Shown: positions 20,401 to 32,595 of the stretch, in pieces | How the letters are laid out: each line of letters begins with the position of its first letter | Position numbering within the stretch: position 1 is the stretch's first letter | Assembly (NCBI RefSeq): GCF_900240945.1 | Contig: NZ_OESG01000014.1 | Coordinates: forward strand, 1,904,015 to 1,968,014 | Origin: Mycobacterium sp. 3519A | GTDB taxonomy: Bacteria; Actinomycetota; Actinomycetes; Mycobacteriales; Mycobacteriaceae | Reading direction: 5' to 3' | DNA: 64,000 bases | Notes under the pieces: model-generated | Seen by the model: only the letters and a program-made list of their open reading frames with translations | What the model was told of the DNA's origin: nothing | Database searches by the model: none | Translations under genes and position numbers: made by a program

Positions 20401-20416
20401 GGTACCGCGTTGTACC
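20401..20416. promoter_or_regulatory. Operator copy 1, GGTAC-N6-GTACC
   Basis: GGTAC-cgcgtt-GTACC, preceded by C and followed by A. It lies 25 bases upstream of the monooxygenase ATG. Its centre is 22 bp from that of copy 2. Confidence 0.75.
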
Positions 20417-20422
20417 ACGTTC

Positions 20423-20438
20423 GGTACCAGACGGTACC
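20423..20438. promoter_or_regulatory. Operator copy 2, GGTAC-N6-GTACC
   Basis: GGTAC-cagacg-GTACC, preceded by C and followed by A. With copy 1 it forms the monooxygenase-proximal pair, on the same helical face (two turns apart). Confidence 0.75.
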
Positions 20439-20475
20439 ACTATTAGACGTGTGTTGGAAAGGGGTTGTGCAAATC

Positions 20476-20491
20476 GGTACTTTGACGTACC
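20476..20491. promoter_or_regulatory. Operator copy 3, GGTAC-N6-GTACC
   Basis: GGTAC-tttgac-GTACC, preceded by C and followed by G. Its centre is 53 bp (five turns) from copy 2 and 23 bp from copy 4. Confidence 0.75.
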
Positions 20492-20498
20492 GTGAACC

Positions 20499-20514
20499 GG
20501 TACCTTGGAGTACC
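20499..20514. promoter_or_regulatory. Operator copy 4, GGTAC-N6-GTACC
   Basis: GGTAC-cttgga-GTACC, preceded by C and followed by A. It lies 18 bases before the P450 ATG, just ahead of its GGAGGTGATC Shine-Dalgarno. Confidence 0.75.
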
Positions 20515-20532
20515 ACCAACGGAGGTGATCGC

Positions 20533-30300: not shown

Positions 30301-30572
30301 ACGTACTTGTGGATGACGTTGAGGGCGCTCACCGGCGCTTCCTGGCCCCACAGCAATTCGACCAGCTCTGTCACGCTGGTCGGCCGCCCCGCACGCGCAA
30401 TGAGCAGCGCGAGCAGATGCGCCTGCTGCGGAGGTCCTGGGTCCAGTTCCACGCCGTCGCGCCAGATGCGCAATGGGCCGAGAATCTGAAGGCGCAGGGG
30501 TGCACTGGGGGCCGATCGGCCGCGCTCGTCACCGGTATCGACAGCACCGATGGGCACAGCCACGTCTGTCAC
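27396..30572 (-). CDS. SARP/AfsR-type regulator with BTAD, ATPase and TPR-like domains
   Basis: A 1058-residue regulator. An OmpR-like winged helix (about residues 27-120, LQILGPLRIWRDG to RRGTGYLF) is followed by a bacterial transcriptional activation domain (about 128-270), then an AAA ATPase with Walker A GEPGVGKT (312-319) and Walker B LVVVLDDLHWAD (419-430), and a long helical repeat C-terminus. SARPs usually activate secondary-metabolism or catabolic genes next to them; the alcohol dehydrogenase-PfpI-hydrolase set lies directly downstream. The GTG start follows no strong Shine-Dalgarno. The ATPase may count or sense a ligand through the repeats. Confidence 0.92.
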   Translation of the reverse strand: MTDVAVPIGAVDTGDERGRSAPSAPLRLQILGPLRIWRDGVELDPGPPQQAHLLALLIARAGRPTSVTELVELLWGQEAPVSALNVIHKYVGTLRRLLDPTIAPRDAGAHLLRRGTGYLFTAGPDTLDLVGFRASVAAAEAALAERQEHRALDYYVDALALWAAPAGDGLTPGPAAMAIFAGLNGEFFDACAAATDLAVSLGQPERVLGPLHLAATMAPLHEPVQAGLITAMGAAGRQAEALAVFRRVRARLAEEIGIDPGQALEAAHRRVLSQTVASADGGLVGRVDELAVLRQAVESAFAGHVGLAIVEGEPGVGKTHLLRQITSEAERRGAQIVWGSCLDGEGTPSMWPWVQAVSSVVATLPDDARRRWLDSDLGRLVEPREGILAAPVLPDSGTQFRLFERVVDVVGQASALKPLVVVLDDLHWADVASLHLFSHLATRLPSRTLFIGALRDRAPAPGTELARTLAAVSRVPGHRRIRVGPLNLAEVTELVRRETGQDPESSVARSIHARTAGNPFFVRELSRFLADGGALAADTAVQAGVPATVRDVVQDRLTRLDEGVEDLLQTAALIGRDVSIELLAASSGVDVQTCLHRLEPLEALGFLEATPGNPYSYRFTHDLVRQSVAESTPPRRATRLHVRIADSLERTGADDESVAERLAYHLWSAGPLAEPARTASALVRAGSCAATKSALEAAERLLRSAVQVARNAGLTELELSALSQLVAVVGMRQMYGTAALDLLERAEHLARTLGREVEAAAFLFSRWTAHVQAIELDRSGPLARRLLEGGYASSDPTMRLYGLQAWGIQQSHAGNVGEGFRYVSQFEQPLLAGLARRDEDPVRADLQLLMTGMLAEITALHGDVEAARVLLDKLEAVAGDNPYRITVWATMVARTASVIGDSQWALRGAERGIAVDEGFSFVFLGTYQRLARCWALALAGENPAAAIAEAQRVIAANLLDPPRSCVATWYALLGEMHLATGATDEAAAALDRADFYLNAYGQRYPEGLILLLRARLLHARGAPVSAVRAAAEKVRALSADRGAHLFAHRADELLAGLR

Positions 30573-30681
30573 TCCCGGATCGACGCCTCAGCTATTCGGC
30601 GAGCTTACTGTCAACTTGCTGTCGAGAAAAGGCGAGGCTGACCCCGGACCAGGGCGCGCGCTGCGCTGGCCCGCCACCATG

Positions 30682-31458
30682 CTAGGCAGTGGCGCGTGCA
30701 CGCTCGAGCAAGGTCGGGTCGTGCGCGCAGACGATCAACAAGTCCGGCTCCTGGCGCGCATACAATTCGGCGAGGCGAGCATGGTTGTCCAGCACCGCTT
30801 TTCGGTCGAACGCGAACATCGTCTCCATGGCGGTCAGCGCCCGCGGCACGGTCGTTCCGTCCAGTGTGCCGTGGTGATAGAACGCATCACCGGCGTGCAG
30901 CACCCAACGATGGCCTGCGTCGACGGCCACACAGGCGTGGCCGCGGGTGTGCCCGGGTAGGGCGACCAATGCGATGCCCGGCGCGATCTCCATCAATTCC
31001 TTCGCGGCGGCGAAGCCACGCCACTTCTCGCCCCGCGGATCGTGTTCGACGATCTTCGGATTGTGTGCCCACTGCACCGAGCGGTAGCGGACCTTCTCCC
31101 GTCGCGACGGCGCCCACATCGCGCCGAGAGCCTCGGCCGCGGTGAGATGGACCTGCGCCTCGGGAAAATCGGCCAGCCCACCCGCGTGGTCCATGTCCAA
31201 GTGGGTGATGACGATGTGCCGCACGTCATTTCGCGTAAATCCGAGACCCTCGATCTGATGCGCGACGGTCTCGTCGTGCCGCAGAACCGGTCTGACCATC
31301 CGGCGGGCAGGCCCCACCCGCTTGGGATCGTCACAATCGTGACTCCCGTAGCCGCTGTCGACGAGCACGAGTCCGCTGTCTGTTTCGACGAGCAACACAT
31401 GGCAGACCATCGGATGTGGCTTCGTCATCGTGCCGCAGTTGAGGTGATGGACCTTCAC
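30682..31458 (-). CDS. MBL-fold metallohydrolase (paralogue 1)
   Basis: A 258-residue metallo-beta-lactamase-fold hydrolase of the lactonase-like branch. The metal motif is THLDMDHAGG: His86, Asp88, Asp90, His91, so the second His of HxHxDH is Asp. Further ligands are PGHTRGH and HAGDAF, and the last His in CAHDP. It probably opens a lactone or thioester. A close paralogue lies at 33042. The GTG start overlaps the TetR stop (GTGA), so it is translated together with the repressor. Confidence 0.88.
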   Translation of the reverse strand: MKVHHLNCGTMTKPHPMVCHVLLVETDSGLVLVDSGYGSHDCDDPKRVGPARRMVRPVLRHDETVAHQIEGLGFTRNDVRHIVITHLDMDHAGGLADFPEAQVHLTAAEALGAMWAPSRREKVRYRSVQWAHNPKIVEHDPRGEKWRGFAAAKELMEIAPGIALVALPGHTRGHACVAVDAGHRWVLHAGDAFYHHGTLDGTTVPRALTAMETMFAFDRKAVLDNHARLAELYARQEPDLLIVCAHDPTLLERARATA

Positions 31459-32078
31459 GGCCGCCTCCCCAGTCGGGAGGCGAGCAACTGCTCCACCTCG
31501 CCGCGCGCGGCGACCAGATCCACCTGCTCGTCCAGCAGATGTTGTAACGCGACTCCTCGCAGCATCGCGACGATCACCGTCGCCAAACCGACAGGGTCGA
31601 TGTCGTCGGGCACGTCACCGGCGCTCACCGCCAACTGGATCCGCTTCTCGATCTCCTCGCGGAACTCGCGGTCGGCGGAGACCATCTGGTCTCTGACGTC
31701 CTCCGACGGCCCCGCCACCGCATCGGCCCACAACACCAGCCTGGCCCGGTTCACCGGCTGTAGGTCCGACACCACTTGAAAGTAGAAGTCGACCAGCTGG
31801 CGCAGCTGATCTAGCGGCGAATCCGATTGACTCTGTTGACTGATCGCGTCGCGGAACTGACTGGTCACCACCTCGACCAGCCGCTGCATCAACGCACCTT
31901 TCGAGCCGAAATGGTGCGTGGCCAGCCCGCGGCTGTAGCCGGCGCGCTGCCCGACATTGGCCAGCGTTACTCGGGTGGGCCCGACCTCGCCGACCAGTTC
32001 CGCAGCGGCACGCACCAACCGGCGCTCGGCGTCGATCCGGCGCTGCTCCTGGGTGCGCGGCAGCGCCGATTCAGTCAC
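31455..32078 (-). CDS. TetR/AcrR family regulator in SnoaL-metallohydrolase operon
   Basis: A 207-residue regulator with helix-turn-helix AERRLVRAAAELVGEVGPTRVTLANVGQRAGYSRGLATHHFGSKGALMQRL and a helical C-terminus. GTG at 32078 overlaps the end of the SnoaL gene by eight bases; the frame is open to 32195 but those residues are antisense-like and not conserved. It is the middle gene of SnoaL-TetR-metallohydrolase, whose promoter carries one CGGTAC-N6-GTACC site. Autoregulation through that site is the simplest reading and would make it the regulator of the BVMO/P450 locus too. Confidence 0.85.
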   Translation of the reverse strand: MTESALPRTQEQRRIDAERRLVRAAAELVGEVGPTRVTLANVGQRAGYSRGLATHHFGSKGALMQRLVEVVTSQFRDAISQQSQSDSPLDQLRQLVDFYFQVVSDLQPVNRARLVLWADAVAGPSEDVRDQMVSADREFREEIEKRIQLAVSAGDVPDDIDPVGLATVIVAMLRGVALQHLLDEQVDLVAARGEVEQLLASRLGRRP

Positions 32079-32538
32079 CAAGCGTCCCGGCCAGCGCGAG
32101 CAGTTCGCCGCGGCCAATCTGCGTGACCAGGCTCGCGGTGTCAAAGTAGATGCGCTCGTTGATGATTCGGTCGCCCTCGAAGAAGAACACCGCAATCAGA
32201 GGCACCCGGAACGACTTACCGGTCGGCGGCATACCGTAGAACTCGCCGAGATTTGTTCCCAGCAGCTCGAATTCGACGATCACCGCATCGTCGGAGACAT
32301 GGAAGCGGGCGTTCTCGTGACGCTGGTCCGGGAACGCGGTGCGGGTGCTCAGGTAATAGCCCATCACCTCGTCGTCGCCGTCGTAGATCTGACCGGTGGC
32401 CATGATCTCGTAGCGGGGATGGCCTTCCCCGTTGGTCTTGAACGTCGCCAGGGTGGCGTCGAACTCCTTGGTCACCTCGGTGTCCATGTGCTCGCGGACG
32501 ATCGCGAGGCGGCGTTGGCGGAGATCGTCAGTGATCAT
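32071..32538 (-). CDS. SnoaL-like/NTF2-fold protein
   Basis: A 155-residue alpha+beta-barrel protein of the SnoaL-like ester-cyclase/isomerase type (PRYEIMATGQIYDGDDEVMGYY, FFFEGDRIINERIYFDTASLVTQIG). The YFDTASLLxQ-type ending is common in SnoaL-like polyketide cyclase homologues. ATG at 32538 follows GGGAGG; a longer frame to 32574 would start inside the promoter. It is the first gene downstream of the operator at 32580-32595. Confidence 0.85.
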   Translation of the reverse strand: MITDDLRQRRLAIVREHMDTEVTKEFDATLATFKTNGEGHPRYEIMATGQIYDGDDEVMGYYLSTRTAFPDQRHENARFHVSDDAVIVEFELLGTNLGEFYGMPPTGKSFRVPLIAVFFFEGDRIINERIYFDTASLVTQIGRGELLALAGTLGD

Positions 32539-32579
32539 GGGGCCCTCCCGAGGCACTTGCTTGTTGGCGAACAAGTTAC

Positions 32580-32595
32580 GGTACCTGGCGGTACC
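32580..32595. promoter_or_regulatory. Operator copy 5, GGTAC-N6-GTACC, upstream of SnoaL-TetR operon
   Basis: GGTAC-ctggcg-GTACC, preceded by C and followed by G, 41 bases upstream of the SnoaL ATG and 15 bases after the SRPBCC stop. It has exactly the same half-sites and spacer as the four copies at 20401-20514, 12 kb away. Confidence 0.75.

What the first reader, a model, noticed from the sequence alone, without database searches (positions are those of the whole stretch)
20401..32595. Five identical-format operators CGGTAC-N6-GTACC define a two-locus candidate regulon
Four GGTAC-N6-GTACC inverted repeats (20401, 20423, 20476, 20499) lie between the divergent BVMO and CYP138 genes, in two pairs with centres 22-23 bp apart. 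A fifth (32580-32595) lies in the promoter of the SnoaL-TetR-metallohydrolase operon. All five are preceded by C and have exactly six spacer bases, while the spacer sequences differ, as expected of a protein-binding site rather than a recent duplication. The TetR at 31455-32078, sitting in the operon with the fifth site, is the simplest regulator (autoregulation plus control of the BVMO/P450 pathway). The combination monooxygenase, P450, hydrolases, SDR, quinone reductase and lactonase-like metallohydrolases looks like a catabolic or detoxifying route not described to me.
Basis: partly seen in the sequence, partly recalled or inferred. Interest (0 to 1): 0.85.

Follow-up and report, generated by a model that had tools for sequence, protein, structure and literature searches.

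The report
P450-linked TetR regulon in mycobacteria
Five matching DNA switches near oxidation and hydrolysis genes belong to a small gene-control network, widespread in mycobacteria, that is probably run by a repressor usually found beside a particular P450 enzyme, and not by the repressor first suspected.

Summary
The five GGTAC-N6-GTACC sites are real (window expectation 0.03). With flanks (YGGTAC-N6-GTACCR) the motif has 8 exact places in the 7.3-Mb genome: four between BVMO and P450, one at the SnoaL-TetR-hydrolase promoter, two between another TetR and a CYP138-like P450, one before an amidase. Tandem pairs occur in 87 of 98 congeneric genomes, control 0 of 98; the 30 pair loci read (of 87 genomes) all have a CYP138-like P450. 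A homologue of the TetR at 18332 is present in 90 of 98; the 8 without it lack the pair. The likely readers are that TetR and its paralogue beside the second P450. The TetR at 31455 has another helix, orthologues in 6 of 98 genomes, and its own palindrome. Its promoter carries both operators, the GTAC one filling the -35/-10 spacer. In G066 the two loci are one cluster; here a ~5.9-kb segment separates them. The regulon reaches an amidase and, in some species, a carboxylesterase. A motif for Rv0135c, probably the paralogue's orthologue, was predicted in 2015 (PMC4482099); I found no report of the wider regulon. No binding data.

The parts
18332..18931 (+). TetR18: TetR-family regulator, best local candidate reader of the GTAC operators; convergent with and overlapping the BVMO 3' end
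   Evidence: PF00440 5.5e-14; HTH 18 of 21 residues alike with the TetR beside the other operator pair of the genome; homologue in 90 of 98 genomes, the 8 without it lack the pair
18882..20375 (-). Baeyer-Villiger-type flavin monooxygenase
   Evidence: PF00743 4e-15; motif FRGPVIHPQHWP fits the recalled BVMO fingerprint; PDB hits cyclohexanone, steroid and phenylacetone monooxygenases
20401..20416 (.). operator 1 (pair 1, BVMO side), CGGTAC-CGCGTT-GTACCA
   Evidence: half-sites the same in G066 and G090
20423..20438 (.). operator 2 (pair 1), overlaps a weak -10-like TACCGT for BVMO
20476..20491 (.). operator 3 (pair 2, P450 side), overlaps a weak -10-like TACTTT for P450
20499..20514 (.). operator 4 (pair 2), 23 bp from operator 3; absent in G090
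20533..21888 (+). cytochrome P450, CYP138-like; 51% identical to the P450 at the second operator locus of the genome
21885..22796 (+). alpha/beta hydrolase
   Evidence: PF00561 1.3e-29; resembles macrolide-esterase and enol-lactonase models below cut-off
22846..23706 (+). short-chain dehydrogenase
   Evidence: PF00106 6.3e-45
23765..24775 (+). quinone-oxidoreductase-like zinc-binding-dehydrogenase-family enzyme; start codon approximate
   Evidence: PF13602 5.2e-19; TIGR02824 2.7e-68, below cut-off
24780..30682 (.). segment absent from G066, where the quinone reductase and metallohydrolase genes are neighbours
   Evidence: BLASTN window against L070, gene order, contents
30682..31458 (-). metallo-beta-lactamase-fold hydrolase, lactonase-like
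   Evidence: PF00753 6.2e-16; lactonase models below cut-off
31455..32078 (-). TetR31: second TetR-family regulator, probably autoregulated through its own palindrome; not the GTAC reader
32071..32538 (-). SnoaL-like protein, first gene of the operon
   Evidence: PF07366 5.3e-16, PF12680 1.2e-11 (scanned with a longer 5' extension)
32560..32575 (.). CTTGTT-N4-AACAAG palindrome, candidate TetR31 operator; only exact place in the genome; overlaps the -10
32573..32578 (-). -10 hexamer TAACTT of the SnoaL-TetR31 promoter (by consensus)
   Evidence: sequence; same in G066 and G070
32580..32595 (.). operator 5; with flanking bases (32579-32596) exactly the 18-bp spacer between -35 and -10
32597..32602 (-). 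-35 hexamer TTGACG of the SnoaL-TetR31 promoter (by consensus)

Best explanation
The sites are operators of a P450-linked TetR regulon. The readers are two paralogous TetR repressors, TetR18 (18332-18931) and the TetR divergent from a second CYP138-like P450 elsewhere in the genome ('L2', Rv0135c-type). A dimer probably binds one YGGTAC-N6-GTACCR site, contacting one GTACC half per HTH. Two dimers on one DNA face, 22-24 or 31-35 bp apart, cover each P450 promoter, and single sites lie in or next to the -10 of trans targets. Without ligand the promoters would be shut. A hydrophobic ligand would release TetR and switch on P450, BVMO, SDR, esterase/lactonase-type hydrolases and an amidase, i.e. 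stepwise oxidation and hydrolysis of an alicyclic, ester or amide compound. TetR31 is a nested second repressor: the SnoaL-TetR31-metallohydrolase promoter carries both a GTAC operator (in the spacer) and TetR31's own palindrome (over the -10), so release of both would be needed. Shown by sequence: sites, conservation, co-occurrence, spacing classes, overlap with promoter-like elements, gene order. Inferred: binding, repression, ligand, pathway.
For: Pair search that assumes no regulator: 87 of 98 genus genomes, control 0 of 98. Of the 30 pair loci read (one per genome, of 87 genomes), 30 flank a CYP138-like P450; 27 show an L2-type and 2 a TetR18-type TetR within the 3-kb locus, 1 shows BVMO and P450 only. 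TetR homologue at E<=1e-20 in 90 of 98; the 8 without it all lack pairs; the 3 with TetR but no exact pair keep one exact and one 1-mismatch site (Fisher 1e-9, not corrected for relatedness). 80 of 80 named L2-type loci (best 80 of 297) have the P450; 78 have an exact pair, 2 an exact plus a 1-mismatch site. Outside the genus, G156 (another family) has hydrolase-P450-pair-TetR18 (67%) and G174 (another genus) P450-pair-TetR. HTH of the two window-genome TetRs alike at 18 of 21 residues, TetR31 at 8 of 21. Spacing, by best-matching P450: 22-24 bp in 20 of 20 within-promoter pairs of the window type, 31-35 bp in 104 of 105 of the L2 type. Five genomes (G011, G063, G065, G079, G090) have 22-23 bp pairs at the window-type genes but only an L2-type TetR, pointing to trans control. 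The amidase site is exact before the amidase in 16 of 98 genomes by one spacer pattern and in 7 more read with other spacers. TTGAC(G/T)-[18-bp operator]-TAACTT at the TetR31-type promoter in G000, G066 and G070.
Against: No binding or expression data. In 16 genomes the TetR18-type gene has no exact site in the stretch of about 9 kb on either side that was read (two of them on short contigs), so TetR18 may be only one of two readers, or a minor one. The fifth site is not general: of 22 SnoaL orthologue loci only G000 and G066 have it, and of 6 TetR31 orthologue loci 3 do. The BVMO and P450 -10/-35 matches are weak and none was found at several related promoters, including the L2 one. Spacing follows the P450 type rather than the TetR type in at least one genome: G067 has a TetR closer to TetR18 (58%) with a 33-bp pair and an L2-type P450. 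One pair outside the genus also breaks the spacing rule (L163). Genomes are related, so counts are not independent. I did not test whether other regulator families co-occur equally well with the pairs.
Confidence: 0.82

Rival explanations
1. TetR31 (31455-32078) reads all five sites.
For: It lies in an operon with a site in its promoter; in 3 of 6 orthologue loci (G000, G066, G070) the site is there.
Against: Orthologues in 6 of 98 genomes, pairs in 87 of 98; HTH alike at only 8 of 21 residues; its promoters have a different palindrome, perfect in 3 and imperfect or longer-spaced in 2 of 6 loci, none seen in the sixth, whose start is uncertain; that palindrome has one exact place in the genome; G041 and G008 keep the same promoter with it but without a GTAC site.
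Confidence: 0.05
2. Only the L2-type (Rv0135c-type) TetR reads the sites; TetR18 has drifted to another role or ligand.
For: Five genomes have window-type pairs and only an L2-type TetR; 9 of 16 genomes with the amidase site have only the L2 type; 16 TetR18-type genes stand alone.
Against: TetR18 keeps a nearly identical HTH and sits beside pairs in several genomes, including G156 of another family.
Confidence: 0.2
3. A non-TetR factor reads the sites (for example a CRP/FNR-type protein, which also uses 5-N6-5 palindromes; recalled).
For: Half-site spacing alone does not identify a family; a nucleotide-cyclase-like gene precedes TetR18.
Against: Pair presence follows the TetR genes in 98 genomes and the pair loci read are at this P450 and mostly beside this TetR. 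I did not run the same test for other regulator families.
Confidence: 0.05
4. Chance, a recent duplication, or a recurrent GTAC/KpnI-like restriction motif.
For: The bare 16-mer is near background genome-wide (9 against 5).
Against: Window expectation 0.03; spacers differ while half-sites stay the same across species; reversed-pattern control 0 of 98 for pairs.
Confidence: 0.01

Closest known systems
Rv0135c / cyp138 (Rv0136) divergent pair of M. tuberculosis
   Same: TetR gene divergent from CYP138; the named relative M. gastri has msrA, P450, TetR and, after a gap, an alpha/beta hydrolase, the order I recall for Rv0137c-Rv0134. Balhana et al. 2015 (PMC4482099, section 11 read whole) list a MEME motif for Rv0135c, E = 6.0E-80, the most significant of their table.
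   Different: Their logo is an image I could not see, so identity with this motif is inferred. They examined intergenic regions of divergent TetR genes; BVMO, SnoaL-TetR31, amidase and carboxylesterase targets and the spacing classes are not in what I read. M. tuberculosis itself was not among the 80 loci fetched.
EthR/EthA and EthR2 (Rv0078)/EthA2
   Same: Mycobacterial TetR repressor next to a Baeyer-Villiger-type monooxygenase (recalled); EthR2 is among the structural neighbours of the modelled TetR.
   Different: Those operators are other sequences (recalled; PMC4482099 calls the EthR motif larger and more complex). Here the TetR follows a P450 and reads short repeated sites at several promoters.
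KstR / KstR2 steroid-catabolism regulons
   Same: TetR repressors with short palindromes controlling scattered catabolic genes including P450s (recalled).
   Different: Different operator (recalled) and a far smaller regulon.
FadR (Bacillus), FasR (M. tuberculosis)
   Same: Among the best structural neighbours of the modelled L2-type TetR (TM 0.79-0.85 for FadR, 0.64-0.74 for FasR).
   Different: 18-23% identity; target genes differ. Suggests at most a lipophilic effector.

Membership tests
TetR-family one-component repressor system | TetR_N DNA-binding domain and all-helical ligand domain | tested here: met
   PF00440 in TetR18 and TetR31; model of the homologue in L155 with 9 helices, pLDDT 95.6, FadR-like; TetR18 itself was not modelled
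TetR-family one-component repressor system | palindromic operator in the regulated promoter | tested here: met
   perfect inverted repeats upstream of the genes named
TetR-family one-component repressor system | the TetR binds that operator and ligand releases it | not testable with these tools
   needs binding assays
Rv0135c-type (CYP138-linked) TetR group | TetR beside a CYP138-like P450 with paired GTAC operators between or next to them | tested here: met
   L2 locus of the same genome, 80 of 80 named relatives with the P450; for TetR18 itself met in relatives such as L076 and L162, while in the window the BVMO lies between
Rv0135c-type (CYP138-linked) TetR group | direct orthology of the L2 gene to Rv0135c | tested here: inconclusive
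   gene order in M. gastri agrees with the recalled order; M. tuberculosis itself was not fetched
TetR31-regulated set | TetR31 reads the GTAC sites | tested here: not met
   by sequence only: 6 of 98 against 87 of 98; different HTH; own palindrome
Type I Baeyer-Villiger monooxygenase | FxGxxxHxxxW(P/D) fingerprint and two dinucleotide-binding motifs | tested here: met
   FRGPVIHPQHWP, GAGLSG and GSGATA found; the fingerprint itself is recalled

The most novel reading that the evidence does not exclude
Two paralogous repressors with nearly the same helix-turn-helix share one operator word, and the genus sorts promoters by pair geometry: two dimers two helical turns apart for the window-type promoters, three turns apart for the L2-type. 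They form a cross-wired detoxification network with scattered amidase and esterase targets, with a third, different TetR nested inside by stacking its own operator on the same core promoter (a two-lock promoter).
Probability: 0.33. Interest if true: 0.62.

Novelty: new member of a known kind. Interest (0 to 1): 0.5.

Why it matters
CYP138 is a conserved mycobacterial P450 about whose function little is known; its deletion in M. tuberculosis changes lipids and antibiotic susceptibility (PMC10999552, abstract). A regulon defined by an 18-bp word, with 8 exact places in a 7.3-Mb genome, says which enzymes probably work together (P450, BVMO, dehydrogenase, hydrolases, amidase) and so narrows the substrate class. 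It also offers a natural case of paralogous repressors sharing an operator and of two TetR operators stacked on one promoter.

Tried and rejected
TetR31 as the general reader: rejected. Chance or duplication: rejected. Degenerate (1-mismatch) regulon members in the own genome: no excess over control, 32 against 66, not pursued. Viral contigs for TetR relatives: none confirmed (the alignment used included TetR31, which weakened its patterns). Adding a leading C to the pair pattern in the order search lost many genus pairs: 10 of the 22 genus genomes and 2 of the 178 others matched, so that tally (12 of 200) understates the spread.

The amidase site first looked like a chance site. In the 12 genus relatives of the relatives set it was found in 1 (G008 scanned); in 22 genomes that I chose, biased towards those with related clusters, in 12. 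The spacer pattern was learned from those sites, so 13 of its 16 genomes were already known; G021, G028 and G077 were new; its reversed control matched in 1 of 98. Some misses were artefacts: in G037, G054 and G082 the amidase stretch matched separately from tsf, and the site was found later (G054 by coordinates only). In the alignment two rows (L303, L304) were taken on the wrong strand; I use it only for the palindrome and the -10/ATG distance of the other rows. In one search the P450 query of the L2 locus was out of frame; corrected from then on. The structure model is of an L2-type homologue (L155), not of TetR18, and its alignment held TetR31 as one row.
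Full report
Observation. The five sites exist as described. Window shuffles give 0.03 expected matches. Only spacing 6 is enriched between GGTAC and GTACC in the window.

Whole genome. The bare 16-mer has 9 places against 5 for the reversed control, so a lone bare site means little. With the flanking pyrimidine/purine learned from 249 distinct paired sites (98% Y before, R after, both strands counted), 8 exact places remain: the window's five, two between a 200-aa TetR and a CYP138-like P450 at C14:1222819 (L002), and one just before the start of an amidase at C13:1820346 (L001). 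The ninth bare site (L009) is inside a DUF4245 frame, 58 bp before a dienelactone-hydrolase-family ORF, and lacks the flank; I treat it as probably chance.

Test of the regulator without assuming one. Searching only for two sites in tandem, 87 of 98 genus genomes match and 0 of 98 match the reversed control. I read one locus each for 30 of the 87: 30 of 30 have a CYP138-like P450, 27 with an L2-type TetR and 2 with a TetR18-type; the thirtieth (L013) shows BVMO and P450. A TetR18/L2 homologue (E<=1e-20) is found in 90 of 98 genomes. The 8 genomes without it are all among the 11 without an exact pair; the other 3 (G032, G073, G076) keep one exact and one 1-mismatch site between TetR and P450. 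In 80 named loci of L2-type TetRs (the best 80 of 297 confirmed), 80 have the P450, 78 an exact pair and 2 an exact plus a 1-mismatch site. Over 21 HTH residues, TetR18 and the L2 TetR of the same genome agree at 18, TetR18 and TetR31 at 8.

TetR31. Orthologues at 59% or better occur in 6 of 98 genomes; 9 more genomes have only hits of 36-40%. Between the fifth site and the SnoaL start lies CTTGTT-GGCG-AACAAG, the only exact place in the genome (reversed control also 1). The same palindrome stands at the TetR31-type promoter in G066 and G070, with a longer spacer in G041 and imperfectly in G008; in G087, where the gene start is uncertain, none was seen. In G000, G066 and G070 the promoter reads TTGAC(G/T)-[CGGTAC-N6-GTACCG]-TAACTT: the GTAC operator is exactly the 18-bp spacer and the TetR31 palindrome covers the -10. 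In G041 and G008 the same hexamers enclose 17 bp without a GTAC site. So the fifth site looks like an added lock on a TetR31-controlled promoter. It is not general: of 22 SnoaL orthologue loci (76% identity or better) only G000 and G066 have it.

One cluster. In G066 (TetR18 98% identical) the order is cyclase-like, TetR18, BVMO, four sites, P450, hydrolase, SDR, quinone reductase, metallohydrolase, TetR31, SnoaL, site, SRPBCC, metallohydrolase. The window has an extra 24780-30682 (alpha/beta hydrolase, DJ-1/PfpI, zinc alcohol dehydrogenase, AfsR/SARP-like regulator); which state is ancestral I infer from the contiguous arrangements elsewhere. Related arrangements: pair-P450-hydrolase-SDR-metallohydrolase-SnoaL (L102; L103 likewise without the hydrolase), SnoaL-metallohydrolase-SDR-site-TetR18 (L080), pair-hydrolase-SDR (L104), three sites between P450 and BVMO (L100). 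In the three BVMO/P450 promoters aligned, all half-sites present are the same while surrounding bases change.

Geometry. Of 132 distinct neighbouring pairs of sites within 60 bp in the loci fetched, those at window-type P450s (by best tblastn match) are 22-24 bp apart (20 of 20 within-promoter pairs; three more are the 52-54 bp distances between pairs), those at L2-type P450s 31-35 bp (104 of 105; the exception, L163, is outside the genus), and 4 have no P450 in reach (21, 22, 25 and 31 bp). This is about two and about three helical turns, hence one DNA face. The link is to the P450 type; G067 has a TetR closer to TetR18 (58%) with a 33-bp pair and an L2-type P450. The loci are related and some were chosen, so the numbers describe a pattern and are not independent trials.

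Trans targets. Five genomes (G011, G063, G065, G079, G090) have 22-23 bp pairs at window-type genes (in G063 before hydrolase-SDR; in G079 the P450 reads in two frames) but only an L2-type TetR at the threshold used. The amidase site, searched by its usual spacer, is in 16 of 98 genomes, in 16 of 16 just before the amidase (13 of these were known when the pattern was made); 9 of these 16 genomes have only the L2 TetR. Its distance to the ATG suggests a -10 (TACCGT) six or seven bases before the start, as in leaderless mycobacterial promoters (inference). In 10 of the 16 genomes with a stand-alone TetR18, the pattern CGGTAC-N6-GTACCR has 33 places by my count: 17 at the L2 pair, 9 at the amidase (8 read, G054 by coordinates), 4 before a carboxylesterase (PF00135; L337, L352, L355, L356), 3 unexplained (L335, L349 and one not read). 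The reversed control had 0 or 1 match per strand in each of the ten.

Beyond the genus. In 200 genomes of the order, pairs (with a leading C) appear in 12: 10 of the 22 genus members and 2 of the 178 others. Those two are G156 of another family with hydrolase-P450-pair-TetR18 (67%), and G174 of another genus with P450-pair-TetR. Within the genus, G268 has TetR(40%)-pair-SDR-BVMO (L166).

Mechanism. Operators overlap or adjoin promoter-like elements at the SnoaL-TetR31, BVMO/P450 and amidase genes; the last two are weak matches, and at the L2 promoter none was found. Repression by occlusion with ligand release is the default TetR reading. The enzyme set (P450, SDR, BVMO, esterase/lactonase-type hydrolases, amidase, carboxylesterase) fits oxidation of an alicyclic or terpenoid-like compound to ketone, then ester or lactone, then hydrolysis, or a general detoxification set. 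The best NCBIfam resemblance of the BVMO is neopentalenolactone D synthase; of the P450, ApyO and then pentalenene oxygenase; all far below cut-off. Substrate and ligand are guesses.

Literature. Balhana et al. 2015 (PMC4482099; section 11 read whole, other passages) list a MEME motif for Rv0135c with E = 6.0E-80; the logo was not visible to me. PMC4564863 (passages) used Rv0135c protein only as a negative control. PMC10999552 (abstract, outline and passages) describes cyp138 deletion; a term search in its main text found no 'Rv0135'. PMC12687858 (passages) lists Rv0135c among genes in a table. PMC4928086 and PMC8379015 (M. tuberculosis amidase and indole carboxamides) were seen in search listings only. 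A search for the literal motif found 0 papers, for GGTAC+GTACC+TetR+palindrom 2 unrelated ones, for Rv0135c 4, for CYP138+Mycobacterium 25 listed, for TetR family+P450+Baeyer-Villiger+Mycobacterium+operator 1 unrelated; one search listed 15 of 7,915. Subscription papers and supplements were not searched, so novelty is only as good as these searches.

Noticed in passing
24780-30682: About 5.9 kb present here and absent from the relative G066, between the quinone reductase and metallohydrolase genes; carries an AfsR/SARP-like regulator, an alcohol dehydrogenase, a DJ-1/PfpI protein and an alpha/beta hydrolase.
   Followed up: partly
30682-31458 and 33042-33848: Two similar metallo-beta-lactamase-fold genes flank the TetR31-SnoaL and SRPBCC genes, apparently duplicates (cross-matches of about 73% DNA identity between window and G066).
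   Followed up: no
L071-L075, L077-L079, L081-L083, L085, L086, L089-L091: In 16 genomes the TetR18-type gene stands alone, in several next to tRNA-like sequences (upstream sequences, judged by eye), with no exact GTAC site in the stretch read.
   Followed up: partly
L337, L352, L355, L356: A carboxylesterase (PF00135) gene with one GTAC operator upstream in four genomes: another likely member of the regulon, with no such exact site in the window's genome.
   Followed up: partly
L009:1501-1516: The ninth bare site of the genome lies at the end of a DUF4245 frame, 58 bp before a dienelactone-hydrolase-family ORF; its flank is G, so it was not counted, but a weak target is possible.
   Followed up: partly
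L166: G268 has a more distant TetR (40%) with a 25-bp pair before an SDR-BVMO operon.
   Followed up: no
L349 (G054) and L335 (G028): Exact CGGTAC-N6-GTACCR sites with no neighbour shared with the other loci; L335's site lies within long open frames.
   Followed up: no
17692-18321: A nucleotide-cyclase-like gene (PF00211) lies 10 bp before TetR18 and is conserved in G066.
   Followed up: no
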